From assembly GCF_026151205.1 (NCBI RefSeq), contig NC_087073.1, forward strand, positions 17,379,837 through 17,443,836: 64,000 nucleotides of DNA. Direction: 5' to 3'. The DNA is from Bolinopsis microptera. Lineage: Eukaryota > Ctenophora > Tentaculata > Lobata > Bolinopsidae. The position numbers and the translations under genes were made by a program. Below, piece by piece: positions 11,782 through 64,000 of this stretch. Below the pieces are notes generated by a model, which saw only the letters and a list, made by a program, of their open reading frames with translations, was not told the DNA's origin and made no database searches. Position 1 is the first letter of the stretch, and each line of letters opens with the position of its first letter.

Positions 11782-11837
11782 TTATATACTTCCATACAGG
11801 GCGCGTGAACAATCAGCAATGAATAGCCAGCTGCTGT

Positions 11838-18828: not shown

Positions 18829-18990
18829 AAAAAGAACAACGAAGGACCACTAAATAAATGAAGTAATGTGCACGCCAGTAAACGATATCCCTCACCTTCT
18901 TCCTGAGTCAGGGGTCTGTTGCCATAGCAACGAGGGAAGAAGAGCGGCAGCGGTTAGGGGTGGGTTTTGCAATGGTTAATGATGAGCCGC
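18829..18990 (+). repeat. Continuation of the 17.7-kb duplication (partner 21453-21605)
   Basis: AAAGAACAACGAAGGACCAC to GCAATGGTTAATGAT is contiguous with copy 1 here, but in copy 2 it is separated from its neighbour by about 990 bp (20463-21452). Confidence 0.85.
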
Positions 18991-19362: not shown

Positions 19363-19376
19363 ATCTTAACATAGGA

Positions 19377-20461: not shown

Positions 20462-20462
20462 A

Positions 20463-36400: not shown

Positions 36401-36662
36401 TAAACTTTAAGGAGGCTTCTCATCAGTAGCCGCACCTCCGTACTCGGTTTCTGAACTGGAATTCTATGGGCTTCCAGACGGCCAGACCGAGTATTACCAT
36501 CCCATCCTTCTAGAGTTCATCACAAGTAGCACCCACCTTGAAGATCTTTGACACCCAGACACACCCCATTGGCGAACAAACTTTGGATATAATCTTACAT
36601 GCTCCCGAAGGAATCCCTGGTTTATGGTCTTTCTCATCGTCACCAGCACTTTCACTAGGTCA
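33489..36662. repeat. Satellite array, 405-bp unit, 7.8 copies
   Basis: The unit repeats at exactly 405 bp from ATAGTTGTGGAC to CACTAGGTCA, with no difference between copies noticed by eye. Each unit contains shorter ~21-bp subrepeats (CTTTCACTGAAGTCATCAG and variants). 405 is divisible by 3, so the same short ORFs recur in each unit (82 codons minus, 63 codons plus, and a start-less plus frame reading YSVSELEFYGLPDGQTEYYH), but each unit has stops in every frame, so no read-through protein exists. The flanks do not share the repeat. It could be a young satellite, a rolling-circle or unequal-exchange product, or a tandem copy of a former exon. Confidence 0.95.
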
Positions 36663-42046: not shown

Positions 42047-44172
42047 CAACCCCCTCGCATTGAAGAAATACATCTTTACTGTGATCACAGTTGTGAGACC
42101 ATGAATACGAACATGAGCTCCATTCACCAGTGTTACAAGACACATCATCCATAACAATACTACTACTACTACTATGTCGGAGCTAAGTCCGATCTACGCC
42201 AGAAAACCCCCTCCATATATCCCTGTCCCGCATCAGGGTTCGCAGTTCCTCTTTAGAGTTTGTCCCAACTTCCTTCAGTAACATAGACAAGTAGCTTTGT
42301 CTTGGTCGGCCTTGCTGTGCTCTACCGTGCGTAGGTTCCCATAAGACTAAATCACTGGCAAGTAGCTCAGGATGTCGGATGCAGTGTCCCGCCATTTTTA
42401 ATCTCCTGCTTCGTAACTTGTTTGACAGCCTTGGGAGGCTACCATACAAAGTTATATTGCTGACCTTGTCCTTCCATGAGATACCCAGCACCATACGCAA
42501 CATCTTTGTGTATGTCCCGTCCAAACTTTTCTCTTGAGCCTTTGTCAGTGTCCAGGTTTCTGATCCGTAGAGCAGTACTGATTCACAAGCCGCTATGAAC
42601 AATCTAATCTTTAGGCTCTTTGAGAGTTTGGATTTCCAGATATCCTTCAGTCTATGTAGGGCACCCCACGCTTTTCCCTTTCTAACCCTTATCTCCCTAT
42701 CTGTGCTCTCAATCCAGGAGCCTAAGTAGATGAAATCATCTACATTTTCTATGGCTTCCCCGGATCGACTTTGTAGGTCGCTTGATCGATCCTCCATATT
42801 CAGTGTCATGACCTTGGTCTTGCCTTCGTTTATGTGTAGTCCCACGCTTGCTGCCGCCGATTCTACTCTGAGCAGGAACTCGTTAGCCTTGTCCATGTCC
42901 TCAGATATAAGTGCTATATCATCTGCAAAGTCCACATCGGTGATGATCTTGGGCCCCACTCTTCTGCTTTTTCTACGTTCGAGGGTGAGTCCAAGTCGCT
43001 CCGCATCATCGCCTATGGCTTGCCTCATACAGTAGTCGATGACTATTGCAAAGAGGTAAGGTGCTAAGGTATCACCCTGTAACACACCTGCAAGTATCTC
43101 GAACAATTCAGTTTCTCCGTCTGGAGTTAGGACTTTGGCCATTGTCTTCTCGTACATGAGCCGTATAAGCTGCACGATTTTGACTGGAATGCCGTAAGCT
43201 TCTAGAATCTTTAGCATTTTCCCACGATGTACACTGTCGAAAGCCTTCTTAAAGTCTATAAATGTCAGAACAGCTGGCAGTTTCCGACTCTTGACACCCT
43301 CTATAAGACGTCTCAGTACCAATATCTGTTGAGTTGTTGACCTTCCTGGTCTGAATCCATTCTGGTTTCTACGCAGAATTGTCTCGATTTCTGGCTTCAA
43401 CCGGTTTAGAACCATCTTGTTTAGAGACTTGGCAACTAGGGATGACAAGCTTATTCCCCGATAGTTCATTGGTTCGCTAAGGTCGCCCTTCTTTGGAATT
43501 GGTATGATGTTGGCAGTTGACCATTGGTCTGGTTTCTCACCTTTCAATAGAGCATTGTTACAGAAGTCTAAGACAATTTGATCAAGGTCGCATCGTTTTA
43601 AGACTTCTGGGGCTATGTTGTCGTCACCCCATGCTTTCCCTTCCTTTATGCTGGACTTTGCTTTCCTGTACTCATCCAACGTAAACGGTTCTGTTCCGAT
43701 ATTCAGAGGTGGGTGGACTGGATCAATATCCTCTTCCGCGTTCTCTACCGTCGGTGGTGAGCCGAGAAGAGTAGCAAAATAGTCCTTCCATTTCTGAACC
43801 CTTTCCGTTGGTGAGTTTCCCTTGATTTTGCCAGTATATGATGGAGCTTTACCTGTGATCTTGTTGATCATGGTCCAGCTTTTAGCATGTCTGCCCTGCC
43901 AACTTGCTTCCTCCATAACAATGGGTCGGTCATCTTGCATTTTCCATCTATTAGCTGAAGTCCAACTAATTTGACCACTGTACCCCATCCTACGACAAAT
44001 AGCATTGGCAGAGTTGTTGCTGAAATCGTCGTTACAAACTGTTCCCTCATTGACTATCAGTAATCCTCGTACTCCCACACCAACGTCTCTACCTTTCCAA
44101 TCTATCAGACTAAAATCTGCATCAGGTGTTGTTATTGAATGTGTTACAAATCCTGACATAATACTTTAAGTC
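42047..44172 (-). pseudogene. SRCR exon of copy A disrupted by an RTE-like retrotransposon
   Basis: The 5' two-thirds of the SRCR domain (DFSLIDWKGRDVGVGVRGLL ... WKMQDDRPIVME) end at 43912. The final third (DDVSCNTGEWSSCSYSWSHN, CDHSKDVFLQCEG) resumes at 42148 and runs to the donor at 42047. Between them lies a retroelement (42159-43911) flanked by an 11-bp target duplication. Near the acceptor, a G insertion and a 2-bp deletion relative to copy B shift the frame if TTGCAG (44173) is used. From an internal Met (44159) the SRCR part runs in frame into the reverse transcriptase, giving a 658-codon chimeric ORF. Whether anything is expressed is unknown. Confidence 0.9.
42159..43911 (-). mobile_element. 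RTE-like non-LTR retrotransposon, 5'-truncated, RT intact
   Basis: 1753 bp, flanked by TCCATAACAAT at 42148-42158 and 43912-43922. The frame (residues 84-658 of the chimeric ORF) lacks the N-terminal endonuclease but keeps the RT motifs: NYRGISLSSLVAKSLNK, QNGFRPGRSTTQQ, FIDFKKAFDSVHR (catalytic Asp), GVLQGDTLAPYLF, DVDFADDIALIS (FADD), GLHINEGKTKVM and IYLGSWIE. The C-terminal LYGSETWTL and MAGHCIRHPELLASDLVLWE segments are typical of RTE-like elements. The 3' end is a (TAG)n tail. 5' truncation, short target duplications and a simple-repeat tail fit target-primed reverse transcription. The intact frame suggests a recent insertion. Relatives lie at 19228 and 29636. Confidence 0.9.
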
Positions 44173-45150: not shown

Positions 45151-45965
45151 ATTTTATCAGGATATGTAATACATAATTACATATTATAATATACGTATAC
45201 ATATATTTATTATTTTAACTTAGAATACTTACTAAAAACTTTCGAGCTCACCGCCGTTTTCTGGTCTATTACTGTATTAATTGATCCTGAAAATGAAAGT
45301 CTGAACATGACGTATTTATTATATTATTTATGTGTTGTTATAAATAACACAAAGTTATTAGTTACATTCCATTGCTTCACTATAGTAATCAGCCACACGT
45401 ACAAAATATATTCGAATAAATTATGCTATAAATATCATAAGGACTATGATTTGATAGAAAGAAAGCTTTTATTCTACTGCAATCTTGGAATTAATTTTAC
45501 TTAAACTTACAGTTTTCGTAAAAATTACGCGAGAAATTTACGGACAGTAATTCTATTGAAAGTGTGGAATTTAACCTCGAATCAAGAATTTCTGAAAATG
45601 AATAATTTTTTTTTTTTTGAATTTTTTTGCTTTGGTTGATTACATTTTTCACTCTATAGGTCCTGCTGTAGGAAGCCATGTGTAGTGTCTGGGTAAATTT
45701 CTAAAGCGAATCGTAAAAGACGATGCAACTTGAACACTGTCAGCTAGAGTGGAGAAAAGTCTATGGATAAAGTTTGATGTACTGAGAGGTCCAGATAATA
45801 GACCTCCTTGGTATTTTCTGTAAATAGTTGAAAAGGCGTGACTTAAGTTACCGAAATTTATCTTTATAATATGTAAATATATATGATTTAAATTATGAGG
45901 AATATTGCTGTTTGACGGAGCCACGATTGACGAATTGGCGCAATTGGCCCAGGAATATAATGCAG
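45151..45965. other. No recognised feature
   Basis: AT-rich, with a poly-T stretch near 45608. Homology to copy B has faded, and no Ig array corresponding to 56042-64000 is present. Confidence 0.5.
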
Positions 45966-45976
45966 GGGGGGGGGGT

Positions 45977-46025
<49 letters not shown>

Positions 46026-46053
46026 GGGGGGGGTGGGGGGGGGGGGGGGAGGG
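45966..46053. repeat. Poly-G tract of about 85 bp
   Basis: Almost pure G with a few T interruptions. Start of block X2. Poly-Gly and poly-Pro ORFs here are artefacts; the true length is likely uncertain. Confidence 0.95.
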
Positions 46054-46437
46054 GACCGGCCGGGCCAGGGCAGAGGCATCACCTTAAAGTGGCGCCAAAT
46101 TATTGTTTGAATGTGGGACACTATTGAAAAAGATTTGATTTGATATATCCTCTAAAATCACCTAATTTGTCCAATTTTACATTTCTACTTTATGTCCAAT
46201 TTTACATTTCTACTTTCTACCCCCACGCCGAAAAGGGGGGGGCAGGGGTGCCAACATGTAACGTTACACCACTGTAAGTGTTATATGTTATTCTATTTTC
46301 TATCACATTGACCAGAAAAGGGGTGAAATCATAAACTTTCTCCTTTTGGTTCTTGAAATAGTGGTTTAAAGTTGTAAGTAAATCCTGGATGGCTTCAATA
46401 GGTTACCCGGCATCTGAAAAGCCCACTAAAGCATTCT

Positions 46438-47188
46438 TTTTTTTTTTTTTTTTTGAGAGGCTGGGCCATGATAGCCCACGAGAGGATAGCATTGAGATGC
46501 TCTGCCTACCTCTGGGGTGTGGCAACCTTGGGGAAGGTTGCCGGTGAGATCAGAGTGATTGATGGAGGGTGGTGTAGGATGTTATATGAGTCAAAATGAT
46601 ACGCTTAAATGCCGGCTGGGTTTGGAAGAGTAACGAGACGAGACAGCACATGAGATAATACTTTAAGTCACCCCGGTCTGATCCAGCTTTTCCGGCACAA
46701 TTAAGCGTTTGGTGCGGTTTGTGAAATTGACAATTGTGGTGATGTGTTGGTTGTCGAATATGTCATTGACAGAGAGGTAGTAGTCCTGGAAATATTGACC
46801 TCTAATTTGGGCAATAGCCGGACACTGTCCAAGGAAGTGTGAGACAGTTTCCTCTCCGTCCCCGCACATAGGACAAGCACTGGTGTTTGATTTGCAAATG
46901 GTGTGAAGGTGTTTATTTAGGCCGCAGTGACCCGTGATGAGGTGAACTGCAGTTCTGTAATCTTGTCTGTTGTTGCTGAGTGTAGTGTTGAGGTTTTTGA
47001 TGATTTTGGCATGCTTGTGGCCGAGTGTCAGTTTGGTGTGTCTGGGACCGTCAGTTGACCAAGTTTCCTGATTCAGTCTGTTGACTTTGTTGTCGATTTG
47101 ACGCTTGATGTAGGATTGTGGAATTGGACACCTCAAAGTGGATTCGCTGATAGTGCCAAGCTTGGCCAGCTCATCTGCTTTTTCGTTC
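46438..47188 (-). mobile_element. 5'-truncated LINE with RNase H C-terminus (Jockey/I-type)
   Basis: Flanked by a perfect 16-bp duplication, CCCACTAAAGCATTCT (46422-46437 and 47189-47204). X1 keeps the empty site at 685-700. The minus-strand frame from 47187 to 46663 starts within an RNase H motif (GNEKADELAKLG) and ends with a zinc-finger-like CPMCGDGEETVSHFLGQCP. A ~210-bp 3' UTR and a poly-A tail (T run 46438-46454 on the plus strand) follow. An RNase H domain after RT is a mark of I/Jockey-group LINEs. The ORF annotated upstream of 47188 is target sequence, not element. Confidence 0.9.
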
Positions 47189-47982
47189 CCCACTAAAGCA
47201 TTCTGTGGATTACTGAAAGCAGTGAAACTTGTAGCTTGTTCTAAATTACTTTTGCGGAAAAAGTGCCTTTTTCCCAACTGAAAACAAATGCCAACAATAA
47301 TGACCCAGACCACATCTATCAGATATTGGGAAATTGGTGAAATGGGTTGGCCTGAAAGATGGCATAGTCCTATTCTTCGAATGCAGGAGGTCAATTGTGG
47401 TCGCCACTTCTTTTGGACTAAACCATGTGTACATGTGTGCCGTAGGTAGGTCAAGACATTTCTTTGCTGGAGTCAAATAACCAGTGGCCTGAACTAAGTA
47501 AAAAGTTCCATTGGCCTGAACTGGATAAATGGTTTCATTGTAGAGAATATTTATTTTTATCAAATCTTTAAAAACAACATCGTCCTGTCTTGCAGACTTG
47601 GTATTATGCAATTTAGGGTTAGAGTTCGAATTAGAATCAAATTGACACAGCAACACAATAAGAATAAAGCATAATTTTAAGAAACTTCAATCTGCTGTGC
47701 TCGATATTCAAATCAGTCAAAAACATATAATCAATGATAGAGTAGTTCAAACAGTATATATATATAATAAATAATATGTAATATCACAATGAGCCTATAT
47801 AAAAGTAAAAATCTGAGTAAAAACCCCTTCAAAACTGAAGAAAATTCATAAAAACCTTTATAGTAAAAGTAGCCAAATGACAATCAATGCACTGGCTCTA
47901 AATCTATATCTAAATCTGCTATTTTAATTGCACTACCACTTTTTGTTTTCACCCCTCTTTCAGTTAAAAACTGTTCATAAAT

Positions 47983-50859: not shown

Positions 50860-51763
50860 ATGTATGGCAGCCTATCTTCGTACGACAGAAAATAAAAGGC
50901 TTCCAGATCACAGATCGGTACAGCAAAATAACTAAAATGGTTACTGACGCTATCCGGCTGTCAAGGTCACTGATGCCGACTTTGCTGACGACCTTGCTCT
51001 TATGACAGATAGTGTTGCGGAGGCACAAGATTTCCTCAGGAGTCTGGAACTGGCCGCCAACTTCGGAGAAGGACTTCGAAGTGAGGAAAACTAAGGCATG
51101 GGGAGCGTGTCACCAGATGAAGCTTGTACGGAAGTCGGATACGCGTAGAGATCTCAAGATACGACTGTTCCTGGCTACAGTTGAGTCCATCCTACTGTAT
51201 GGCTCTGAAACATGGACTTTCAGCCAGACCCTCGTAAAACGTATTGATGGATTTTATACGAGAATGCTGAGGATGGCACTTAACTGGAAAGAGCGGCAGA
51301 CTAACGCCAAGGTATATGGACACCTCATCAGAGCATCTGATAAGATAGCTGAACGGAGGATGAGACTTGCAGGTCATCTAGCCAGACATGAAGAACTTCT
51401 GAGTCATCAACTTCTCTTCTGGGAACCCCTTCAAGGACATCGTCGTATGGGATCGAAGACCACACCTCACATATATTGACATGTGGCTTGACGACAGCAA
51501 GGAGATTAACAAACTCATGCTGGATAGACAGATTTGGAAAAAAACTATCTCTGTTCGGACGTTGAAGCCGCCCTAAGTCGAAGAGTAAGTCGAGTTACTT
51601 TTTTGTTTGTTTTTGATACAGTTCTTTTGGAATCACTTTTTAAAATACCTAAAAGTAAAACGTAGTGTAAAACGTTCAATTTCTCCTCAAGTATAAGTAG
51701 AAATTCTGAAATTGTCAACAATCAGAAAATATGTTTGAGTACTCCAACAGCTACTTCTTTTCT
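50860..51763 (+). mobile_element. Second LINE family fragment, copy B
   Basis: Same as 38520-39593, with a 7-bp deletion before FADD and a ~120-bp deletion near 51060 (between the palm and thumb parts). The residual frame reads WGACHQMKLVRKSD, LYGSETWTFSQTL and RRMRLAGHLARHEE. Confidence 0.75.
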
Positions 51764-51776
51764 GGAACTTCAGCTC
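51764..51776 (-). pseudogene. CCP exon stub (copy B)
   Basis: GGAACTTCAGCTC plus upstream intron homology, the same truncation point as in copy A, so the loss predates the duplication. Confidence 0.6.
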
Positions 51777-51886
51777 CTGAAATAGGTTGATCACTGACGA
51801 TGAAAGTCTTGACATCAATACTTGTCAAATTTACTCAAATCTCTACGCAAATTTGGCCTTCATGTTTTTTATCTTAAAGGGGTTAC

Positions 51887-52339
51887 CTATGTAATATGAG
51901 TCAGATGCTGTATGGGTAATTGGTAAATAGATTGTGTTTGCTTCTCGTCCGTAATATGTAGCCCATGTGGTACTATATTCTGGATTGTCGCATATCTCCG
52001 AGGACGCAGCCACTTCTAAAACCATTTTCCCATTGCAGTATACTTTTATTGTTTTGCCTCGCTTACTGATCATCCAGGTCCTTTGTTGGTCTGCAGGTAA
52101 ACTTACTGGGAAACTGGTGTAGTAACGCATACACTCCCCTATCAGGTACTTAACCGAGTAGGTGGATACAAACCAGATATAGAATGATCCAGCCTGGTAT
52201 AGGTCTGTATCATAAAACCATATCTTAATGTTTTGTCTATTTCCTACAAAACTAATCGAAGTTGTCATATGCAGATACGAAGTCTCCAAGTTAGCATCGA
52301 GGAATCTTTCTCGTATCACGGGATTCCAGGTATCATGCT
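51887..52339 (-). CDS. Receptor-like gene copy B: last ~151-aa module exon
   Basis: 151 codons, phase 1-1. Differs from its copy A counterpart (39717-40169) by only a few residues (SFVGNRQ for SFLGNRQ; LIGECMRYY for LLGECMRYY). It is the last complete exon recognisable on the 3' side. The following CCP exon is only a stub, so the gene's true terminus (membrane anchor or stop exon) is not visible. Reading through the donor gives NPFKIKNMKAKFA and a stop. Confidence 0.75.
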
Positions 52340-52641
52340 CTGAAATATAGATTATTAATAAGAAGTGAACTTTCAGATATCTCACAAAAAGTTAGACTTT
52401 AAATTCTTATCTTGGATGTAAAATGTAAGAGAGTCAGCAATCATTCATTCAATTTTATTTTTGAACGAGCAGTTCATTTGTAATGAAATTAAATCTGGTA
52501 GTGTAAATAGTCCAATAAGAAGCCCAATATTTTCTTAATAAGACTGGAATTATATATTTCATACGAACCAGTAAATGTCTTATTTTGTACAGAATTCAAT
52601 AATCTAATTTTATACAAGCAGAATTTCAGTAATCAACTCAC

Positions 52642-52965
52642 CGATTCCCTGGCACTGAAGAAATACATCTTTACTGTGATCACAGTTGTGAGACCATGAA
52701 TAAGAGCATGAACTCCATTCACCACTGTTACAAAATACATCATCCATAGCAATGGTGCGATCATCTTGCATTTTCCATTTGTCAGTAGAAGTCCAACTAA
52801 TTTGACCACTGTACCCCATCCTACGACAAATAGCATTGGCAGAGTTGTTGCTGAAATCATCATTACAAACTGTTCCCTCATTGACTATCAGTAATCCTCG
52901 TACTCCCACACCAACGTCTCTACCTTTCCAATCTATCAGACTAAAATCTGCATCAGGTGTCGTTA
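52642..52965 (-). CDS. Receptor-like gene copy B: second SRCR exon
   Basis: Encodes DADFSLIDWKGRDVGVGVRG through NCDHSKDVFLQCQG with all six cysteines. Near-identical to 40473-40796. Donor ATCG|GTGAGT. As in copy A, the upstream TTGCAG acceptor position reads GGCAA, so the 5' limit (CTTTCAG|TA, or an acceptor about 60-70 bp further upstream) is uncertain. Starting at CTTTCAG would lose the first beta strand (FVTLSV). Confidence 0.8.
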
Positions 52966-53207
52966 CTGAAAGTGTTACAAATCTTGTTACATAATACTTC
53001 AATTTTGCCATTACGGCTACCAGATCGATACAGCAATATAACAAATATACTTGATTGGTATAACTCTTCCTACTTATAGCCATCTCCGTACAACATACAA
53101 ATTTTCAATTGTGTATCACTATAATTCTTCAGAAATATTTGTAAAAACGTCTTCTTGTGGGAGTACCTATAACTGTTTATCCATACTAACAGTTTACTTC
53201 TACTTAC

Positions 53208-53399
53208 ATGAACACTTAGGCTCAGTCACAAAATAGAACTGCGTATATTGATGACATGTGATTTCACTGTCCCCAAATTGATGGTATCCATCCTCACATC
53301 GGAGAATAACCTTTGTTCCATTGAGTACTGGAAAGTCACTGCTTGCCACAATGTTGCTCCACTTAGCATCTAGTCCAGTGCATTTTGGAACATCAGTTC
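53208..53399 (-). CDS. Receptor-like gene copy B: CCP/Sushi exon
   Basis: 64 codons, with a single residue difference noticed from copy A (GDSEITC for GDTEITC). Four cysteines retained. It separates the two SRCR/~151-aa pairs. Confidence 0.8.
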
Positions 53400-53492
53400 C
53401 TGAACAATTTTTGATCAGTGAAAGTCTTGACATCAATAATTTTCATATATTTACTCGAATCTCTATATAAATTTGACCTTTATGTTTTTTAC

Positions 53493-53948
53493 CTATGTAA
53501 TATAATTCTGAAGCTGTGTGGGTAATTGGGAAAAAGATTGCGTTTGCTTCTCGTCCGTAATATGTAGCCCATGTGGTACTATATTCTGGATTGTCGCATA
53601 TCTCCGAGGACGCAGCCACTTCCAAAACTATTTTTCCATTGCAGTATACTTTTGTGGTTTTGCCACGCTTACTGATCATCCAGGTCCTTTGTTGGTCTGC
53701 AGGCAAACTTACTGGGAAACTGGTGTAGTAACGCATACACTCCCCTAGCAGGTACTTAACCGAGTAGGTGGATACAAACCAGATATAGAATGATCCGGCC
53801 TGGTATAGGTCTGTATCATAAAACCATATCTTAATGTTTTTTCTATTTCCCACAGAACTACTAGAATTAGTTTTCATATGCAGATACAAAGTCTCCAAGT
53901 TAGCACTGAGGAATGTTTCTCGTATCACGGGATTCCAGGTATCATACT
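53493..53948 (-). CDS. Receptor-like gene copy B: first ~151-aa module exon
   Basis: 152 codons, phase 1-1. Closest to 41322-41777 but with some residues shared with the other module copy (QQRTWMISK, NPEYSTTW), suggesting gene conversion between modules. C-terminal landmark altered to TASELYYIG. Confidence 0.75.
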
Positions 53949-54180
53949 CTGAAATATAGATTATTAATAACTTTCAAAGCACTCACAGAAAGTAATACCT
54001 TATCTTGGATGTAAAATGTAAGAGAGTCTGTAATCATTCATTTAATTTTATCTTTGAACGAGCAGTTCCTTTGTAATAAAATAAAATTCTATTCGATATT
54101 GTAAATACTTCAACAAAAAGCTCAATGCTTATTTTTCTTTGTAGCGACCTAAATTATTGAAAGGAAAGGATAATCAATAA

Positions 54181-54231
54181 AGTTTCAAATTGTATATATA
54201 TATACAATTTGAAACTATATATATATACTTA
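54181..54231. repeat. Intronic AT palindrome
   Basis: Counterpart of 41876-41935 with a shorter TA core. Confidence 0.85.
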
Positions 54232-54348
54232 AATATTATAAGCATATATAGATGAACCGTGCCAGATATTTTATTCGATAAATTTCTTATTCCTACAGAA
54301 TCCACTAATCTAATTTTCAAAATAGCAAAATTTCAGTAATCAACTCAC

Positions 54349-54711
54349 CAACCCCCTCGCATTGAAGAAATACATCTTTACTGTGATCACAGTTGTGAGT
54401 CCATGAATACGAACATGAACTCCATCCAGCAGTGTTACAAGAAACATCATCCATAGTAATGGGTCGGTCACCTTGCATTTTCCATCTATTAGCTGAAGTC
54501 CAACTAATTTGACCACTGTACCCCATCCTACGACAAATAGAATTGGCAGAGTTGTTACTGAAATCGTCGTTACAAACTGTTCCCTCATTGACTATCAGTA
54601 ATCCTCGTACTCCCACACCAACGTCTCTACCTTTCCAATCTATCAGACTAAAATCTGCATCAGGTGTCGTTATTGAAAGTGTTACAAATCCTGTTACATA
54701 ATACTTCAAGT
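54349..54711 (-). CDS. Receptor-like gene copy B: first SRCR exon (uninterrupted)
   Basis: 121 codons, phase 1-1, acceptor AGTTGCAG, donor GTTG|GTGAGT. Full SRCR domain including the first strand (VTGFVTLSITTPDADFSL), VCNDDF, ICRRMGY, VSCNTAGWSSCSYSW and NCDHSKDVFLQCEG. This is the intact counterpart of the retroelement-split exon at 42047-44172. It connects the Ig region to the SRCR/module/CCP region. Confidence 0.85.
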
Positions 54712-55151
54712 CTGCAACTGATAACGTTACAATTAATTAATGTTACTCTCGCTGCTGGAAACTTAATTCGATTTTTCGTCACAATCGATTAATAAACATG
54801 ATAAATGATTAAATATTAAGTTTGATGTTTGATAACCCCTCCACTTGTACAATGCACTTTAATACGCTGTGCCATTTTCTAAAGCAAATCACCGGACAAA
54901 ACATCACTAAACAACAAATCACTGGACTAAAAACCACCGGAAAATAAATTGCTGGACAACACATCACAGTGGTACTATGATCTCAGACCATGCATTTTGT
55001 GCATTCATAGAGCATCTTCATCCGTTCATTACGCTGATTCCGGGAAGCATTCTTAGGCGAGCATTAGGGGCTCAATTATGGGCTGTCATTCATAAACTGT
55101 CTCCTCATATTCAATTTCTTATCTCTAAAATGTAAAATTGGTATAACTCAC

Positions 55152-55442
55152 CGTATACATAAAGGTGGACTTCAAAATCCTCCTTGTCTGATTCAGTGTT
55201 TTGGAGTGAGGACACAGTGCAAGTGTACGTTTTATTAGAAGTGACAGCTGCTGATTTTACAGTCAGAGTTCCTGTTTGACTGTTGGAGACAGAATCATAG
55301 GATCCTGAACTTGGCACGTATTTGTCGTCACCATCATCAAATCCAGTCCATTCAATGGACATTTCCTTGGTTATTCCCTTTATTTTGCAAGCGAGTGATG
55401 TTTCTGTGTTAATGAGTACTCCCTTGCTTGATACCTCTGTGG
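55152..55442 (-). CDS. Receptor-like gene copy B: divergent Ig exon, SRCR-proximal
   Basis: 97 codons, phase 1-1, strong acceptor TTCCTCCCTGCTCAG, donor TACG|GTGAGT. Reads TSLACKIKGITKEMSIEWTG (Cys...Trp), GTLTVKSAAVTSNKTYTCTV (Y.C) and FEVHLYVYG, a canonical Ig fold outline. It is clearly distinct in sequence from the 20-unit array but shares the ...VYG exon end. Copy A has lost it. Confidence 0.85.
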
Positions 55443-55546
55443 CTGAGCAGGGAGGAATATCAGATTTATGTGGATTGTAAGTAAATGTAAATGTCATGTA
55501 TCGTAGTTCTTAATTGGTATTTATAATGGTCAGACTAAAAACTCAC

Positions 55547-55819
55547 CATAGACGTTGAGTGACACAAGCGTCTCAGAGGGTTTCGACAATGGGTTCCGTC
55601 CAGATGAAACCACACAAGTGTACTCCGTATCCTCTTGTGGGCTGATAACTGTCAGGGTGGAGATCTGAGTATTACCGATAAGTTCCCCTTCAGTTGATCC
55701 GTCTACTGTTTGGTTTCCTTTGGTCCAACTCACTGTAGCTTTTGCTTCTAATCCCGTGACTTTACAGGAGAGAACTGTTTCTTTACCGTTATAAGCATCT
55801 TTGTGTGTCGGTGTTACAT
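55547..55819 (-). CDS. Receptor-like gene copy B: second divergent Ig exon
   Basis: 91 codons, phase 1-1, acceptor GATTTGTAG, donor TATG|GTGAGT. Reads KETVLSCKVTGLEAKATVSW, then STLTVISPQEDTEYTCVVSS and LVSLNVYG. Intermediate between 55152-55442 and the array units. Its counterpart in copy A (44714-44993) is frameshifted. Confidence 0.85.
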
Positions 55820-56041
55820 CTACAAATCAATGCAAATTAGAATTCGTTTACATCGAAACATGGCTCTGGCTACTAAAAATAGTATAATTTTAAAGATTTG
55901 AATCCTTCGATCCCTCTTCTATTAACTGTTAAAAAAGTAAGTTATCGTAAAGCATTTTGAAGTTTGGTAGTAAGATATAAATTCGTACTGATCTTAGAAA
56001 AACTTTAGTGCAAGATTATTGTAAACATTTAAAGAACATAC

Positions 56042-56332
56042 CATAAACGTTAAGATTGACGGTTGTATCCGAGTGGCTCGAAGCAGGTAAAGAACCGGAA
56101 GTCACTCTGCAAGTGTAGGCAGTATCTTCATTCACAAGAGTCCCGTCTACAGCAAGAGTTGATGTTTGTGTCCCTCCAGAATGGCTTCCTTGGACAGGGG
56201 TGAACTTTTCAGCTGGAACTGGTCCTGTACTAGTTCGCCAGGTCACTGTTGCAGTTTCTGCCAATCCAGTGATAACACAGGATATTGTTGAATCAGAGCC
56301 TTTCTTCGCTTCTTTGTTTACTGATTCAACGT
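56042..56332 (-). CDS. Ig array unit 1 (most 3', most divergent)
   Basis: 97 codons. Private changes: EAKKGSDSTISC where the others have EVKKGSDTTISC, GLAETATV and SLPASSHSD. Cys (ISC), Trp (TVTW) and Y.C (AYTC) are kept. The acceptor reads TATCTCAG. Being the boundary unit it probably escapes most exchange. Confidence 0.85.
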
Positions 56333-56441
56333 CTGAGATAAGTTATCGTAAAGAATTTTGAAGTTTGACTGTAAGTATAAATTCAATCTCAAATTATCAA
56401 AACTGTAGTGCAAGAATATTGTAAACATTTAAAGAACATAC

Positions 56442-56732
56442 CATAAACGTTAAGATTAACGGTGGTATCCGAATGTCTGGAATCAGGTAAAGAACCGGAA
56501 GTCACTCTGCAAGTGTAGGCAGTATCTTCATTCACAAGAGTCCCGTCTACAGCAAGAGTTGATGTTTGTGTCTCTCCAGAATGGCTTCCTTGGACAGGGG
56601 TGAACTTTTCAGCTGGAACTGGTTTTGTACTAGTTCGCCAGGTCACTGTTGCAGTTTCTGCCAATCCAGTGATAACACAGGATATTGTTGTATTTGAGCC
56701 TTTCTTCACTTCTTTGTTTACTGATTCAACGT
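56442..56732 (-). CDS. Ig array unit 2
   Basis: Variant residues: GSNTTISC, GLAETATV (shared with unit 1), STKPVPAEKF (unique Lys), GETQTST, SLPDSRHSD. Confidence 0.85.
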
Positions 56733-56841
56733 CTGAAGTAGGTTATCGTAAAGAATTTTGAAGTTTGACTGTAAGTATAAATTCAATCTCAAATTATCAA
56801 AACTGTAGTGCAAGAATATTGTAAACATTTAAAGAACATAC

Positions 56842-57132
56842 CATAAACGTTAAGATTAACGGTGGTATCCGAATGTCTGGAATCAGGTAAAGAACCGGAA
56901 GTCACTCTGCAAGTGTAGGCAGTATCTTCATTCACAAGAGTCCCGTCTACAGCAAGAGTTGATGTTTGTGTCTCTCCAGAATGGCTTCCTTGGACAGGGG
57001 TGAACTTTTCAGCTGGAACTGGTCCTGTACTAGTTCGCCAGGTCACTGTTGCTGTTTCTGTCAATCCAGTGATAACACAGGATATTGTTGTATCTGAGCC
57101 TTTCTTCACTTCTTTGTTTACTGATTCAACGT
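56842..57132 (-). CDS. Ig array unit 3
   Basis: GLTETATV, STGPVPAEKF, GETQTST, SLPDSRHSD. The 3' part is like unit 2 and the 5' part like the rest of the array, suggesting a recombinant. Confidence 0.85.
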
Positions 57133-57241
57133 CTGAAGTAGGTTATTGTAAAGCATTTTGAAGTATGACTGTAAGTATAAATTCAATCTCAAATAATCAA
57201 AACTGTAGTGCAAGATTATTGTAAAAATTTAAAGAACATAC

Positions 57242-57532
57242 CATAAACGTTAAGATTGACGGTGGTATCCGAATGGGTGGAATCAGGTAAAGAACCGGAA
57301 GTCATTCTGCAAGTGTAGGCAGTATCTTCATTCACAAGAGTCCTGTCTACAGCAAGAGTTGATGTTTGTGTCCCTCCAGAATGGCTTCCTTGGACAGGGG
57401 TGAACTTTTCAGCTGGAACTGGTCCTGTACTAGTTCGCCAGGTCACTGTTGCTGTTTCTGTCAATCCAGTGATAACACAGGATATTGTTGTATCTGAGCC
57501 TTTCTTCACTTCTTTGTTTACTGATTCAACGT
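57242..57532 (-). CDS. Ig array unit 4
   Basis: STGPVPAEKF, GGTQTST, AVDRTLV, CRMTSG (unique Met), STHSD. Counterpart of unit 10. Confidence 0.85.
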
Positions 57533-57641
57533 CTGAAGTAGGTTATTGTAAAGCATTTTGAAGTATGACTGTAAGTATAAATTCAATCTCAAATAATCAA
57601 AACTGTAGTGCAAGATTATTGTAAAAATTTAAAGAACATAC

Positions 57642-57932
57642 CATAAACGTTAAGATTGACTGTGGTATCCGAATGGGTGGAATCAGGTAAAGAACCGGAA
57701 GTCACTCTGCAAGTGTAGGCAGTATCTTCATTCACAAGAGTCCCGTTTACAGCAAGAGTTGATGTTTGTGTCTCTCCAGAATGGCTTCCTTGCACAGGGG
57801 TGAACTTTTCAGCCGGAACTGGTCTTGTACTAGTTCGCCAAGTCACTGTTGCTGTTTCTGTCAATCCAGTGATAACACAGGATATTGTTGTATCTGAGCC
57901 TTTCTTCACTTCTTTGTTTACTGATTCAACGT
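57642..57932 (-). CDS. Ig array unit 5
   Basis: STRPVPAEKF, GETQTST, AVNGTLV (creates an N-G-T glycosylation sequon), STHSD. Counterpart of unit 11. Confidence 0.85.
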
Positions 57933-58046
57933 CTGAAGTAGGTCATTGTAAAGCATTTTGAAGTTTGACTGTAAGTATAAATTCAATCTCAAATTGATGA
58001 AACTGTAGTTCAAGATTATTGTAAACAAATATATTAAAGAACATAC

Positions 58047-58337
58047 CATAAACGTTAAGATTGACAGTGGTATCCGAATGGCTGGAATCAGGTAAAGAAC
58101 CGGAAGTCACTCTGCAAGTGTAGGCAGTATCTTCATTCACAAGAGTCCCGTCTACAGCAAGAGTCGATGTTTGTGTCCCTCCAGAATGGCTTCCTTGGAC
58201 AGGGGTGAACTTTTCAGCTGGAACTGGTCCTGTACTAGTTCGCCAGGTCACTGTTGCTGTTTCTGTCAATCCAGTGATAACACAGGATATTGTTGTATCT
58301 GAGCCTTTCTTCACTTCTTTGTTTACTGATTCAACGT
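58047..58337 (-). CDS. Ig array unit 6
   Basis: STGPVPAEKF, GGTQTST, AVDGTLV, SSHSD. The downstream intron is 5 bp longer than usual. Counterpart of unit 12. Confidence 0.85.
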
Positions 58338-58446
58338 CTGAAGTAGGTTATTGTAAAGCATTTTGAAGTTTGACTGTAAGTATAAATTCAGTCTCAAATT
58401 ATTGAATCTGGAGTGCAAGATTATTGTAAAAATTTAAAGAACATAC

Positions 58447-58737
58447 CATAAACGTTAAGATTGACGGTGGTATCCGAATGGCTGGAATCAGGTAAAGAAC
58501 CATAAGTCACTCTGCAAGTGTAGGCAGTATCTTCATTCACAAGAGTCCCGTCTACAGCAAGAGTTGATGTTTGTGTCCCTCCAGAATGGCTTCCTTGGAC
58601 AGGGGTGAACTTTTCAGCCGGAACTGGTCTTGTACTAGTTCGCCAGGTCACTGTTGCTGTTTCTGTCAATCCAGTGATAACACAGGATATTGTTGTATCT
58701 GAGCCTTTCTTCACTTCTTTGTTTACTGATTCAACGT
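58447..58737 (-). CDS. Ig array unit 7
   Basis: STRPVPAEKF, AVDGTLV, CRVTYG (Tyr for Ser), SSHSD. Counterpart of unit 13. Confidence 0.85.
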
Positions 58738-58846
58738 CTGAAGTAGGTTATTGTACAGCATTTTGAAGTTTGACTGTAAGTATAAATTCAGTCTCAAATT
58801 ATTGAATCTGTAGTGCAAGATTATTGTAAAAATTTAAAGAACATAC

Positions 58847-59137
58847 CATAAACGTTAAGATTGACGGTGGTATCCGAATGGCTGGAATCAGGTAAAGAAC
58901 CAGAAGTCACTCTGCAAGTGTAGGCAGTATCTTCATTCACAAGAGTCCCGTCTACAGCAAGAGTTGATGTTTGTGTCCCTCCAGAATGGCTTCCTTGGAC
59001 AGGGGTGAACTTTTCAGCTGGAACTGGTCCTGTACTAGTGCGCCAGGTCACTGTTGCTGTTTCTGTCAATCCAGTGATAACACAGGATATTGTTGTATCT
59101 GAGCCTTTCTTCACTTCTTTGTTTACTGATTCAACGT
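58847..59137 (-). CDS. Ig array unit 8
   Basis: Consensus protein: STGPVPAEKF, GGT, AVDGTLV, RVTSG, SSHSD. Confidence 0.85.
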
Positions 59138-59246
59138 CTGAAGTAGGTTATTGTAAAGCATTTTGAAGTTTGACTGTAAGAATGAATTCAATCTCAAATT
59201 ATCGAAACTGTATTGCAAGATTATTGTAAACATTTAAAGAACATAC

Positions 59247-59537
59247 CATAAACGTTAAGATTGACAGTGGTATCCGAATGGCTGGAATCAGGTAAAGAAC
59301 CAGAAGTCACTCTGCAAGTGTAGGCAGTATCTTCATTCACAAGAGTCCCGTCTACAGCAAGAGTTGATGTTTGTGTCCCTCCAGAATGGCTTCCTTGGAC
59401 AGGGGTGAACTTTTCAGCTGGAACTGGTCCTGTACTAGTGCGCCAGGTCACTGTTGCTGTTTCTGTCAATCCAGTGATAACACAGGATATTGTTGTATCT
59501 GAGCCTTTCTTCACTTCTTTGTTTACTGATTCAACGT
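59247..59537 (-). CDS. Ig array unit 9
   Basis: Exon protein same as unit 8. Differs mainly in silent bases and intron. Confidence 0.85.
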
Positions 59538-59646
59538 CTGAAGTAGGTTATTGTAAAGCATTTTGAAGTATGACTGTAAGTATAAATTCAATCTCAAATA
59601 ATCAAAACTGTAGTGCAAGATTATTGTAAAAATTTAAAGAACATAC

Positions 59647-59937
59647 CATAAACGTTAAGATTGACGGTGGTATCCGAATGGGTGGAATCAGGTAAAGAAC
59701 CGGAAGTCACTCTGCAAGTGTAGGCAGTATCTTCATTCACAAGAGTCCTGTCTACAGCAAGAGTTGATGTTTGTGTCCCTCCAGAATGGCTTCCTTGGAC
59801 AGGGGTGAACTTTTCAGCTGGAACTGGTCCTGTACTAGTTCGCCAGGTCACTGTTGCTGTTTCTGTCAATCCAGTGATAACACAGGATATTGTTGTATCT
59901 GAGCCTTTCTTCACTTCTTTGTTTACTGATTCAACGT
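59647..59937 (-). CDS. Ig array unit 10
   Basis: STGPVPAEKF, AVDRTLV, CRVTSG, STHSD. Differs from unit 4 only by Val for Met. Confidence 0.85.
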
Positions 59938-60046
59938 CTGAAGTAGGTTATTGTAAAGCATTTTGAAGTTTGACTGTAAGTATAAATTCAATCTCAAATA
60001 ATCAAAACTGTAGTGCAAGATTATTGTAAAAATTTAAAGAACATAC

Positions 60047-60337
60047 CATAAACGTTAAGATTGACGGTGGTATCCGAATGGGTGGAATCAGGTAAAGAAC
60101 CGGAAGTCACTCTGCAAGTGTAGGCAGTATCTTCATTCACAAGAGTCCCGTTTACAGCAAGAGTTGATGTTTGTGTCTCTCCAGAATGGCTTCCTTGGAC
60201 AGGGGTGAACTTTTCAGCCGGAACTGGTCTTGTACTAGTTCGCCAAGTCACTGTTGCTGTTTCTGTCAATCCAGTGATAACACAGGATATTGTTGTATCT
60301 GAGCCTTTCTTCACTTCTTTGTTTACTGATTCAACGT
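60047..60337 (-). CDS. Ig array unit 11
   Basis: STRPVPAEKF, GETQTST, AVNGTLV sequon, STHSD; exon protein as unit 5. Confidence 0.85.
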
Positions 60338-60451
60338 CTGAAGTAGGTCATTGTAAAGCATTTTGAAGTTTGACTGTAAGTATAAATTCAATCTCAAATT
60401 GATGAAACCTTAGTTCAAGATTATTGTAAACATATATATTAAAGAACATAC

Positions 60452-60742
60452 CATAAACGTTAAGATTGACAGTGGTATCCGAATGGCTGGAATCAGGTAA
60501 AGAACCGGAAGTCACTCTGCAAGTGTAGGCAGTATCTTCATTCACAAGAGTCCCGTCTACAGCAAGAGTCGATGTTTGTGTCCCTCCAGAATGGCTTCCT
60601 TGGACAGGGGTGAACTTTTCAGCTGGAACTGGTCCTGTACTAGTTCGCCAGGTCACTGTTGCTGTTTCTGTCAATCCAGTGATAACACAGGATATTGTTG
60701 TATCTGAGCCTTTCTTCACTTCTTTGTTTACTGATTCAACGT
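60452..60742 (-). CDS. Ig array unit 12
   Basis: Exon protein as unit 6, with the same elongated downstream intron. Confidence 0.85.
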
Positions 60743-60851
60743 CTGAAGTAGGTTATTGTAAAGCATTTTGAAGTTTGACTGTAAGTATAAATTCAGTCTC
60801 AAATTATTGAATCTGTAGTGCAAGATTATTGTAAAAACTTAAAGAACATAC

Positions 60852-61142
60852 CATAAACGTTAAGATTGACGGTGGTATCCGAATGGCTGGAATCAGGTAA
60901 AGAACCATAAGTCACTCTGCAAGTGTAGGCAGTATCTTCATTCACAAGAGTCCCGTCTACAGCAAGAGTTGATGTTTGTGTCCCTCCAGAATGGCTTCCT
61001 TGGACAGGGGTGAACTTTTCAGCCGGAACTGGTCTTGTACTAGTTCGCCAGGTCACTGTTGCTGTTTCTGTCAATCCAGTGATAACACAGGATATTGTTG
61101 TATCTGAGCCTTTCTTCACTTCTTTGTTTACTGATTCAACGT
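60852..61142 (-). CDS. Ig array unit 13
   Basis: STRPVPAEKF, CRVTYG; exon protein as unit 7. Confidence 0.85.
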
Positions 61143-61251
61143 CTGAAGTAGGTTATTGTACAGCATTTTGAAGTTTGACTGTAAGTATAAATTCAGTCTC
61201 AAATTATTGAATCTGTAGTGCAAGATTATTGTAAAAATTTAAAGAACATAC

Positions 61252-61542
61252 CATAAACGTTAAGATTGACGGTGGTATCCGAATGGCTGGAATCAGGTAA
61301 AGAACCATAAGTCACTCTGCAAGTGTAGGCAGTATCTTCATTCACAAGAGTCCCGTCTACAGCAAGAGTTGATGTTTGTGTCCCTCCAGAATGGCTTCCT
61401 TGGACAGCGGTGAACTTTTCAACTGGAACTGATCCTGTAGTAGTTCGCCAGGTCACTGTTGCTGTTTCTGTCAATCCAGTGATAACACAGGATATTGTTG
61501 TATCTGAGCCTTTCTTCACTTCTTTGTTTACTGATTCAACGT
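61252..61542 (-). CDS. Ig array unit 14
   Basis: TTGSVPVEKFTAV in place of STGPVPAEKFTPV, plus CRVTYG. The most divergent loop variant. The intron on its upstream side (61543-61651) carries a private GTATGTTATCG variant shared only with unit 18. Confidence 0.85.
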
Positions 61543-61651
61543 CTGAAGTATGTTATCGTAAAGCATTTTAAAGTTTGACTGTAAGCATAAATTCGATCTT
61601 AAATTATCAAAACTGTATTGCAAGATTATTGTAAAAATTTAAAGAACATAC

Positions 61652-61942
61652 CATAAACGTTAAGATTAACGGTGGTATCCGAATGGCTGGAATCAGGTAA
61701 AGAACCGGAAGTCACTCTGCAAGTGTAGGCAGTATCTTCATTCACAAGAGTCCCGTCTACAGCAAGAGTTGATGTTTGTGTCCCTCCAGAATGGCTTCCT
61801 TGGACAGGGGTGAACTTTTCAGCTGGAACTGGTCCTGTACTAGTGCGCCAGGTCACTGTTGCTGTTTCTGTCAATCCAGTGATAACACAGGATATTGTTG
61901 TATCTGAGCCTTTCTTCACTTCTTTGTTTACTGATTCAACGT
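61652..61942 (-). CDS. Ig array unit 15
   Basis: Consensus protein (GP, GGT, VDGT, TSG, SSHSD). Counterpart of unit 19. Confidence 0.85.
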
Positions 61943-62051
61943 CTGAAGTAGGTTATTGTAAAGCATTTTGAAGTTTGACTGTAAGAATAAATTCAATCTC
62001 AAATTATGGAAACTGTATTGCAAGATTATTGTAAAAATTTAAAGAACATAC

Positions 62052-62342
62052 CATAAACGTTAAGATTGACAGTGGTATCCGAATGGCTGGAATCAGGTAA
62101 AGAACCGGAAGTCACTCTGCAAGTGTAGGCAGTATCTTCATTCACAAGAGTCCCGTCTACAGCAAGAGTCGATGTTTGTGTCCCTCCAGAATGGCTTCCT
62201 TGGACAGGGGTGAACTTTTCAGCTGGAACTGGTCCTGTACTAGTTCGCCAGGTCACTGTTGCTGTTTCTGTCAATCCAGTGATAACACAGGATATTGTTG
62301 TATCTGAGCCTTTCTTCACTTCTTTGTTTACTGATTCAACGT
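62052..62342 (-). CDS. Ig array unit 16
   Basis: Consensus protein. Counterpart of unit 20. Confidence 0.85.
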
Positions 62343-62451
62343 CTGAAGTAGGTTATTGTAAAGCATTTTGAAGTTTGACTGTAAGTATAAATTCAGTCTC
62401 AAATTATTGAATCTGTAGTGCAAGATTATTGTAAAAATTTAAAGAACATAC

Positions 62452-62742
62452 CATAAACGTTAAGATTAACGGTGGTATCCGAATGGCTGGAATCAGGTAA
62501 AGAACCGGAAGTCACTCTGCAAGTGTAGGCAGTATCTTCATTCACAAGAGTCCCGTCTACAGCAAGAGTTGATGTTTGTGTCCCTCCAGAATGGCTTCCT
62601 TGGACAGGGGTGAACTTTTCAGCCGGAACTGGTCTTGTACTAGTTCGCCAGGTCACTGTTGCTGTTTCTGTCAATCCAGTGATAACACAGGATATTGTTG
62701 TATCTGAGCCTTTCTTCACTTCTTTGTTTACTGATTCAACGT
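62452..62742 (-). CDS. Ig array unit 17
   Basis: STRPVPAEKF with CRVTSG. Resembles units 7/13 except for the Ser at the TYG/TSG site. Confidence 0.85.
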
Positions 62743-62851
62743 CTGAAGTAGGTTATTGTACAGCATTTTGAAGTTTGACTGTAAGTATAAATTCAGTCTC
62801 AAATTATTGAATCTGTAGTGCAAGATTATTGTAAAAATTTAATGAACATAC

Positions 62852-63142
62852 CATAAACGTTAAGATTGACGGTGGTATCCGAATGGCTGGAATCAGGTAA
62901 AGAACCATAAGTCACTCTGCAAGTGTAGGCAGTATCTTCATTCACAAGAGTCCCGTCTACAGCAAGAGTTGATGTTTGTGTCCCTCCAGAATGGCTTCCT
63001 TGGACAGCGGTGAACTTTTCAACTGGAACTGATCCTGTAGTAGTTCGCCAGGTCACTGTTGCTGTTTCTGTCAATCCAGTGATAACACAGGATATTGTTG
63101 TATCTGAGCCTTTCTTCACTTCTTTGTTTACTGATTCAACGT
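62852..63142 (-). CDS. Ig array unit 18
   Basis: TTGSVPVEKFTAV and CRVTYG; exon protein as unit 14. Confidence 0.85.
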
Positions 63143-63251
63143 CTGAAGTATGTTATCGTAAAGCATTTTAAAGTTTGACTGTAAGCATAAATTCGATCTT
63201 AAATTATCAAAACTGTATTGCAAGATTATTGTAAAAATTTAAAGAACATAC

Positions 63252-63542
63252 CATAAACGTTAAGATTAACGGTGGTATCCGAATGGCTGGAATCAGGTAA
63301 AGAACCGGAAGTCACTCTGCAAGTGTAGGCAGTATCTTCATTCACAAGAGTCCCGTCTACAGCAAAAGTTGATGTTTGTGTCCCTCCAGAATGGCTTCCT
63401 TGGACAGGGGTGAACTTTTCAGCTGGAACTGGTCCTGTACTAGTGCGCCAGGTCACTGTTGCTGTTTCTGTCAATCCAGTGATAACACAGGATATTGTTG
63501 TATCTGAGCCTTTCTTCACTTCTTTGTTTACTGATTCAACGT
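63252..63542 (-). CDS. Ig array unit 19
   Basis: Consensus except STFAVDGT (Phe for Leu). Confidence 0.85.
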
Positions 63543-63651
63543 CTGAAGTAGGTTATTGTAAAGCATTTTGAAGTTTGACTGTAAGAATAAATTCAATCTC
63601 AAATTATGGAAACTGTATTGCAAGATTATTGTAAAAATTTAAAGAACATAC

Positions 63652-63942
63652 CATAAACGTTAAGATTGACAGTGGTATCCGAATGGCTGGAATCAGGTAA
63701 AGAACCGGAAGTCACTCTGCAAGTGTAGGCAGTATCTTCATTCACAAGAGTCCCGTCTACAGCAAGAGTCGATGTTTGTGTCCCTCCAGAATGGCTTCCT
63801 TGGACAGGGGTGAACTTTTCAGCTGGAACTGGTCCTGTACTAGTTCGCCAGGTCACTGTTGCTGTTTCTGTCAATCCAGTGATAACACAGGATATTGTTG
63901 TATCTGAGCCTTTCTTCACTTCTTTGTTTACTGATTCAACGT
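63652..63942 (-). CDS. Ig array unit 20 (last complete unit in window)
   Basis: Consensus protein. The window ends 58 bp into the intron beyond it, whose sequence again matches array introns, so at least one further unit is expected. Confidence 0.85.
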
Positions 63943-64000
63943 CTGAAGTAGGTTATTGTAAAGCATTTTGAAGTTTGACTGTAAGTATAAATTCAGTCTC

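What the first reader, a model, noticed from the sequence alone, without database searches (positions are those of the whole stretch)
51764..64000. Multi-domain receptor candidate: (Ig)n-Ig-Ig-SRCR-module-CCP-SRCR-module
All complete exons on the minus strand share phase 1-1 and good splice sites, and the domains are those used in invertebrate immune and adhesion proteins. I know of no named protein with this exact order. A role in non-self or allo-recognition is inference from the domain set, tandem paralogues and fast exon turnover.
Basis: partly seen in the sequence, partly recalled or inferred. Interest (0 to 1): 0.85.

Follow-up and report, generated by a model that had tools for sequence, protein, structure and literature searches.

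The report
Comb-jelly protein with repeated Ig domains
A comb-jelly gene joins a long array of at least twenty near-identical immunoglobulin exons to a scavenger-receptor tail carrying an uncatalogued domain; it looks like a real, probably secreted recognition or adhesion protein, not a proven receptor or self/non-self gene.

Summary
The minus strand carries 20 array Ig exons (291 nt each), two further Ig exons, then SRCR, M, CCP, SRCR, M and a short stop exon; 27 of 27 complete exons are phase 1-1 with AG/GT sites.

The locus matches Bolinopsis microptera LOC134826857 (P0002). That public model joins an upstream CUB domain to Ig-Ig-SRCR-M. It puts Ig and SRCR in one gene, but skips the 20-Ig array and stops before CCP-SRCR-M.

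Related array units (84-93% mean identity) occur in four other B. microptera models: P0010, P0011, P0012 (with SRCR) and P0014 (an adhesion GPCR). Tail replacement changes are rarer than silent ones (pN/pS 0.25, p=3e-5); the array signal is weaker (p=0.03).

No transmembrane segment was found, so "receptor" is unproven; allorecognition has no positive support. Best reading: a secreted modular scavenger/adhesion protein with an Ig stalk grown by block duplication. The order and M are new to me; the kind is known. Transcripts crossing the array are the missing test.

The parts
56042..63942 (-). Array of 20 Ig exons (291 nt each; 17 introns of 109 nt and two of 114), reading towards lower coordinates; continues beyond 64000
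   Evidence: 20 of 20 open, phase 1-1, AG/GT; Pfam Ig for the two units tested; AF2 Ig fold of one unit, mean pLDDT 83.3
55547..55819 (-). IgB exon (first non-array Ig; residues 144-234 of P0002)
55152..55442 (-). IgA exon (closest hit among the 18 fetched proteins, its own locus aside: an Ig of P0013, 43%)
54349..54654 (-). SRCR1 exon with the acceptor used by the public model (alternative acceptor, same phase: 54711); 6 cysteines
53493..53948 (-). M1 exon, uncatalogued ~150-aa domain
53208..53399 (-). CCP (Sushi) exon, 4 cysteines
52642..52947 (-). SRCR2 exon (boundary set by analogy with SRCR1; alternative acceptor 53016); 6 cysteines
51887..52339 (-). M2 exon
51751..51776 (-). Terminal exon (AEVPEKK, stop TAG); looks like a truncated second CCP exon; the paralogue has GADVPEKK with TAA
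39581..45286 (-). Broken paralogue: linker exon (45286-45233), IgB with stops/frameshifts, no IgA exon found, SRCR1 split by an inserted reverse-transcriptase element, then M-CCP-SRCR-M still open; no Ig array. The duplicated stretch continues to 38884

Best explanation
The feature is the 3' part of one ctenophore gene (matching Bolinopsis microptera LOC134826857). Order: CUB (upstream, outside the window), linker, at least 20 near-identical I-set-like Ig, IgB, IgA, SRCR, M, CCP, SRCR, M, stop. Shown: exons, phases, domains, array turnover by block duplication, silent changes outnumbering replacement ones per site in the tail, related arrays in four other models of the species. Inferred: the array exons are spliced in, at least in some transcripts; the product is secreted or matrix-bound; the Ig array is a stalk whose length changes by unequal crossing-over; and the SRCR/M/CCP end (with the CUB end) binds ligands, as SRCR proteins of the DMBT1/CD163 type do, for microbe trapping or cell/matrix adhesion in the jelly. 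Most likely function: a soluble or matrix-bound pattern-recognition/adhesion protein.
For: 27 of 27 exons in phase 1-1 with AG/GT. P0002, the public protein of this locus, joins CUB + IgB + IgA + SRCR1 + M1. Its CUB is not in the window, so it should lie upstream, and the gene then spans the array. In the paralogue a 54-nt exon matching the P0002 linker sits directly before IgB; in the finding's copy array-type sequence fills that place and ends inside the 222-bp intron before IgB. Four tail exons against the paralogue: pN 0.016, pS 0.062, p=3e-5. Array: mean difference 0.024 in exons, 0.063 in introns (variable sites 32 of 291 and 23 of 109, p=0.014); 14 silent changes on 73.7 sites, 19 replacement changes on 214.3, p=0.03. 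Public models splice 22, 20 (plus a partial one) and 16 such Ig in P0010, P0011, P0012, the last with SRCR. Class evidence: in Mnemiopsis 12 SRCR genes were differentially expressed after a second Vibrio exposure, 8 of them up (PMC11797021, passages seen).
Against: The public model of this very gene skips the whole array and ends by reading into the intron after M1, so inclusion of the array and of CCP-SRCR2-M2 has no transcript support here. The array signal is weak and its copies are not independent. Against the paralogue, exons as a whole are hardly less different than introns (38 of 1476 against 23 of 742 sites, 2.6% and 3.1%). The P0002 model shows no hydrophobic start, so secretion is inferred from the domains alone. 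In Mnemiopsis none of the candidate immune genes changed at the first Vibrio exposure. No direct functional data. M's closest relative (P0003) ends in a membrane anchor and a cytoplasmic tail, which fits a receptor better than a secreted protein.
Confidence: 0.6

Rival explanations
1. The array is not part of the mature product: the expressed protein is the short public model (CUB-Ig-Ig-SRCR-M), and the 20 exons lie in its intron as an unused or rarely used cassette. Because every exon is phase 1-1, skipping keeps the frame.
For: P0002 joins the linker straight to IgB; the broken paralogue shows an array-free arrangement.
Against: 20 of 20 exons open with intact splice sites; replacement changes rarer per site than silent ones; other models of the species have arrays spliced in. 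Short reads from near-identical exons map ambiguously, so a model can lose them (inference).
Confidence: 0.22
2. A membrane receptor: a further exon, missed here, adds a transmembrane segment and a cytoplasmic tail.
For: P0003, the only other one of 18 fetched proteins with M, is SRCR x3 - M - a long hydrophobic segment (21-residue mean 3.1) - a tail with a PPxY-like motif (motif read by eye). P0013 and P0014 carry related Ig on seven-helix receptors. One stretch about 4 kb downstream (near 47.8 kb) reaches a mean of 2.2.
Against: Both copies stop right after M2 (TAG and TAA); the P0003 tail has no tblastn hit in the window beyond low-complexity and chance ones; the 2.2 stretch lies beyond sequence that by eye is retroelement and was not examined for splice sites; elsewhere in 51750-45300 the other two frames reach at most 1.8.
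Confidence: 0.1
3. Allorecognition or individually diversified non-self receptor.
For: Ig array with recent turnover and a paralogue; 9 of 19 replacement changes fall in two loops (18 of 97 residues; binomial p=0.004, loops chosen after seeing the data).
Against: Copies are 96.3% alike; replacement changes are not significantly more loop-bound than silent ones (9 of 19 against 4 of 14, p=0.31); pN/pS below 1; quoted Mnemiopsis grafts held for days (PMC10309991, passages).
Confidence: 0.03
4. A decaying locus with no working product.
For: The neighbouring copy is broken, CCP2 looks truncated, and overall exon and intron divergence between the copies is similar.
Against: The copy in the finding has no stop or frameshift in 27 exons and replacement changes in the tail are a quarter as frequent per site as silent ones.
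Confidence: 0.05

Closest known systems
B. microptera P0002 (LOC134826857, public model)
   Same: Same locus: IgA, SRCR1 (from its acceptor on) and M1 identical, IgB identical but for the splice-junction residue, in one protein
   Different: Adds an upstream CUB; lacks the array, CCP, SRCR2 and M2
B. microptera P0012 (named 'basement membrane-specific heparan sulfate proteoglycan core protein-like')
   Same: 16 Ig of the same array unit (83.8% mean identity) with SRCR domains in one model
   Different: SRCR first, then Ig; no M or CUB hit; contig of another length (20.8 Mb)
B. microptera P0014 (adhesion GPCR: GPS + 7tm_2, pentaxin; HRM and LDLa only below cut-off)
   Same: 3 Ig of the same unit, 92.6% mean identity to this array
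   Different: Seven-helix receptor; no SRCR or M hit; contig of another length (16.3 Mb)
B. microptera P0003
   Same: SRCR followed by M (29% identical); among 18 fetched proteins M is found only here and in P0002
   Different: Three SRCR, no Ig hit; ends in a hydrophobic segment and tail
DMBT1 / CD163 type SRCR proteins
   Same: SRCR domains with 6 cysteines; among the best sequence matches to solved structures (5e-22 to CD163, 2e-12 to DMBT1)
   Different: No Ig array or M (recalled for the human proteins)
Mnemiopsis leidyi SRCR repertoire (PMC11797021)
   Same: 55 SRCR genes, some with CUB or Ig; CCP is listed in the legend of the SRCR panel
   Different: In the 12 of 23 passages shown, this order, M and a homogenised Ig array were not mentioned; figures and supplements not seen

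Membership tests
SRCR superfamily, group A | Pfam SRCR domain above cut-off | tested here: met
   PF00530 46.9 and 48.3 bits against a cut-off of 26.1
SRCR superfamily, group A | Six conserved cysteines (group definition recalled) | tested here: met
   6 cysteines in each of SRCR1 and SRCR2
Immunoglobulin superfamily | Ig fold with two core cysteines and tryptophan | tested here: met
   Pfam Ig families above cut-off for IgA, IgB and both array units tested; C18, C74, W31 invariant in the 7 aligned; AF2 model pLDDT 83.3, Foldseek matches to MyBP-C, NCAM and titin Ig, E from 2.5e-5
CCP/Sushi | Pfam Sushi above cut-off and four cysteines | tested here: met
   23.6 bits against 20.7; 4 cysteines
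Cell-surface receptor | Transmembrane segment or anchor | tested here: not met
   Within the window's part of the gene: maximum 19-residue hydropathy 1.0 in 2749 aa, against 3.1 (21 residues) for the segment of P0003. The 5' end is outside the window
Allorecognition locus | Polymorphism that controls graft or fusion outcome | not testable with these tools
   No population or graft data for this locus
Mutually exclusive exon array (Dscam type) | Diverged exon variants, one chosen per transcript | tested here: inconclusive
   Copies are near-identical, which does not fit; splicing itself could not be tested
Known domain family for M | Match to a Pfam family or a solved structure | tested here: not met
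   Best Pfam E 0.14 (PF06439, 2 of 5 members), best PDB E 1.2 and 1.7; AF2 model unusable (pLDDT 39.8)

The most novel reading that the evidence does not exclude
A self-contained 400-bp, phase 1-1 Ig exon unit spreads between unrelated genes of a ctenophore (SRCR proteins, adhesion GPCRs, giant Ig proteins) on at least three chromosomes and is then amplified in place, giving ectodomains whose length varies between individuals and can be trimmed by splicing; the M domain is a ctenophore invention serving as the ligand-binding partner of SRCR.
Probability: 0.15. Interest if true: 0.75.

Novelty: new variant of a known kind. Interest (0 to 1): 0.5.

Why it matters
Ctenophores are placed as sister to other animals in recent work (PMC10232365, search listing only), so their recognition proteins bear on what early animal immunity and adhesion looked like. 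Here one Ig exon unit is shared, at 84-93% mean protein identity, by SRCR-bearing proteins and an adhesion GPCR of one species and is homogenised within arrays, a clear case for studying exon shuffling and array growth. M is an uncatalogued extracellular domain beside SRCR. The public annotation left the array out of this gene, so giant Ig proteins of this kind may be under-counted.

Tried and rejected
Structure of M from a five-row alignment: pLDDT 39.8, not used further. Weak Pfam leads for M (PF06439 E 0.14, SoxZ E 0.16) were not taken as evidence. A search with the M region of P0003 (residues 322-490) found only P0003 itself among 85 candidates. Papers: SRCR + CCP + Ig + allorecognition + invertebrate found none; ctenophore + allorecognition + fusion, Mnemiopsis + allorecognition, and a wider one gave listings, of which PMC10309991 (five passages) was used and PMC12912722 (one passage) held nothing relevant. 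The listings showed no paper on Ig exon arrays in ctenophores; (no ctenophore term) listed Dscam, Sp185/333 and mucin papers, not opened. PMC10855680: three passages seen. Loop clustering of array changes was rejected as evidence of diversification. My first SRCR exon starts (54711 and 53016) were set aside for the acceptor of the public model; the selection count still used the longer SRCR2 exon (373 of 375 nt aligned), so up to 69 of its bases may be intron. A first hydropathy scan skipped ahead after each hit and was replaced.

Each accepts only proteins of 0.55-1.75 times the query length; one search scored only the 7989 candidates sharing most words. The absence of M elsewhere is therefore not proven.
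Full report
Observation. Read on the minus strand, the region holds 20 array Ig exons from 63942 to 56042, each 291 nt with introns of 109 (17) or 114 nt (2), then IgB, IgA, SRCR1, M1, CCP, SRCR2, M2 and a 26-nt terminal exon ending in a stop at 51751. All 27 complete exons have AG/GT sites, lengths divisible by three and phase 1-1. Pfam finds Ig, SRCR and Sushi in the stretches tested; M has no family. The array runs off the window end, so 20 is a minimum. The translation is 2749 aa plus stop.

Identity. A protein search returned P0002, 'uncharacterized protein LOC134826857 [Bolinopsis microptera]', identical over IgA, SRCR1 and M1 and over IgB except the splice-junction residue. It carries a CUB domain (4.8e-27) with no match in the window beyond a short linker-like exon of the paralogue, so the CUB should lie upstream. 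The public model thus spans the array but skips it, starts SRCR1 at an acceptor 57 nt further in than my first model, and ends by reading into the intron after M1. That the window comes from this species is inferred from the match; the genome tool did not complete (8 tries).

One gene or two. For one gene: P0002 joins Ig and SRCR exons; order, strand and phase are continuous; in the broken paralogue a 54-nt exon matching the P0002 linker lies just before IgB, so the array occupies one intron of that arrangement. The intron between the last array Ig and IgB is 222 bp; its first part is array-type sequence (to about 55935) and the rest is not. In the related model P0011 the array is followed by an IgB-like stretch (41% over 34 residues against 44% over 32 for the array unit; better E-value for IgB; weak). 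Against: no transcript seen here crosses the array.

Is the array coding? Twenty of twenty copies are open. Mean pairwise difference is 0.024 in exons and 0.063 in the 17 introns of 109 nt (the two of 114 nt left out of this count). There are 14 silent changes on 73.7 sites and 19 replacement changes on 214.3 sites (p=0.03); variable sites are 32 of 291 in exons and 23 of 109 in introns (p=0.014). The copies share history, so this is supportive only. Ig1-4 and Ig5-8 differ at 0, 1, 0 and 3 sites, Ig8-11 and Ig14-17 at 0, 0, 2 and 1: growth by blocks of several units. For the tail, four exons compared with the paralogue give 19 silent changes on 304.5 sites and 18 replacement changes on 1156.5 (ratio 0.25, p=3e-5). 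By exon (silent, replacement): M1 9, 13; CCP 3, 1; SRCR2 5, 2; M2 2, 2. Against this, total exon divergence (38 of 1476) is hardly lower than intron divergence (23 of 742), so silent sites look faster than introns here. Since the paralogue is now broken, the signal reflects selection before that or on this copy.

Relatives. With a 2749-aa query restricted to residues 1844-2465, nine proteins passed. Four B. microptera models carry the same unit: P0010 (22 copies), P0011 (20 whole and a partial one), P0012 (16, with SRCR) and P0014 (3, on an adhesion GPCR); mean identity to this array, over units of exactly 97 residues (22, 19, 16 and 3), is 84.6, 91.2, 83.8 and 92.6%. P0013, another adhesion GPCR (F5/8C, 19 Ig by my profile, GPS, 7tm_2), has diverged Ig; apart from its own locus IgA is closest to one of these (43%). 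In a tree of 102 Ig rows, group labels need 13 changes against a mean of 61.8 for shuffled labels (near-copies alone make labels cluster); 41 of 82 inner branches are drawn open, and window units do not form one clean group (Ig20 sits with a P0014 unit, Ig3/Ig7 with a P0011 unit, both unstarred). A Mnemiopsis protein of 4706 aa (P0017) has many Ig, only distantly alike.

M. About 150 residues, three cysteines in M1 and M2, after an SRCR in both of the proteins that have it among the 18 fetched (P0002, P0003). No significant Pfam or PDB match and no usable fold. In P0003 it sits between three SRCR and a hydrophobic segment with a 21-residue mean of 3.1.

Tail. SRCR-M-CCP appears doubled: the stretches around SRCR are 90% and around M 87% alike, and the terminal exon starts like CCP but stops after eight residues; the paralogue ends alike with a different stop codon. 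SRCR sequences match CD163 best and DMBT1 well among solved structures, and the acidic stretch after the first cysteine is partly kept (CNDDF against CDDNF); metal binding is inference. No transmembrane-like stretch lies in the translated part; downstream, one reading frame reaches a mean of 2.2 near 47.8 kb, about 4 kb past the stop.

Mechanism. Shown: architecture, turnover, skew against replacement changes in the tail. Inferred: secretion (the P0002 start is not hydrophobic), Ig stalk, ligand binding by the SRCR/M and CUB ends. In Mnemiopsis, 12 SRCR genes (of 55 found) were differentially expressed after a second Vibrio exposure, 8 of them upwards, and none of the candidate genes after the first (PMC11797021, passages seen); this makes a defence role plausible for the class, not shown for this gene. 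Allorecognition is disfavoured by the near-identity of the copies and, weakly, by quoted grafts in Mnemiopsis (PMC10309991, passages seen).

Verdict. A real gene with an unusual domain order, an uncatalogued domain and a homogenised Ig exon array shared between genes of a ctenophore. It is a new variant of known SRCR/Ig multidomain proteins, not a new kind of system. That the order is not in print rests on the paper searches only.

Noticed in passing
window, about 42160-43915: A reverse-transcriptase element with a long open frame (42183-44165, which also covers part of SRCR1) is inserted in SRCR1 of the broken paralogue; both flanks share an 11-base repeat and it ends in a (TAG)n tail, so the insertion looks recent (identified by eye).
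   Followed up: partly
window 33489-36662: 405-bp tandem repeat, 7.8 copies at 100% matches, with stops in all six frames of the unit; a very young satellite-like array or an assembly effect.
   Followed up: partly
window 17747-18829 and 19375-20462: Local direct duplication, 98.3% identical.
   Followed up: no
window 45965-46054: 90-base G run (91% matches), possibly a sequencing or assembly weak spot.
   Followed up: no
window 28817-29228: Cluster of 10-bp minisatellites (ACTGCTGCTC) in both orientations.
   Followed up: no
window 11823-12530 (+), 46663-47472 (-) and 51006-51479 (+): Fragments that look like non-LTR retroelement reverse transcriptase or RNase H by eye; not searched.
   Followed up: no
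P0010, P0011, P0012, P0013 (database proteins): Automatic names such as 'mucin-22-like', 'titin-like' and 'basement membrane-specific heparan sulfate proteoglycan core protein-like' hide one shared or related Ig-array family.
   Followed up: yes
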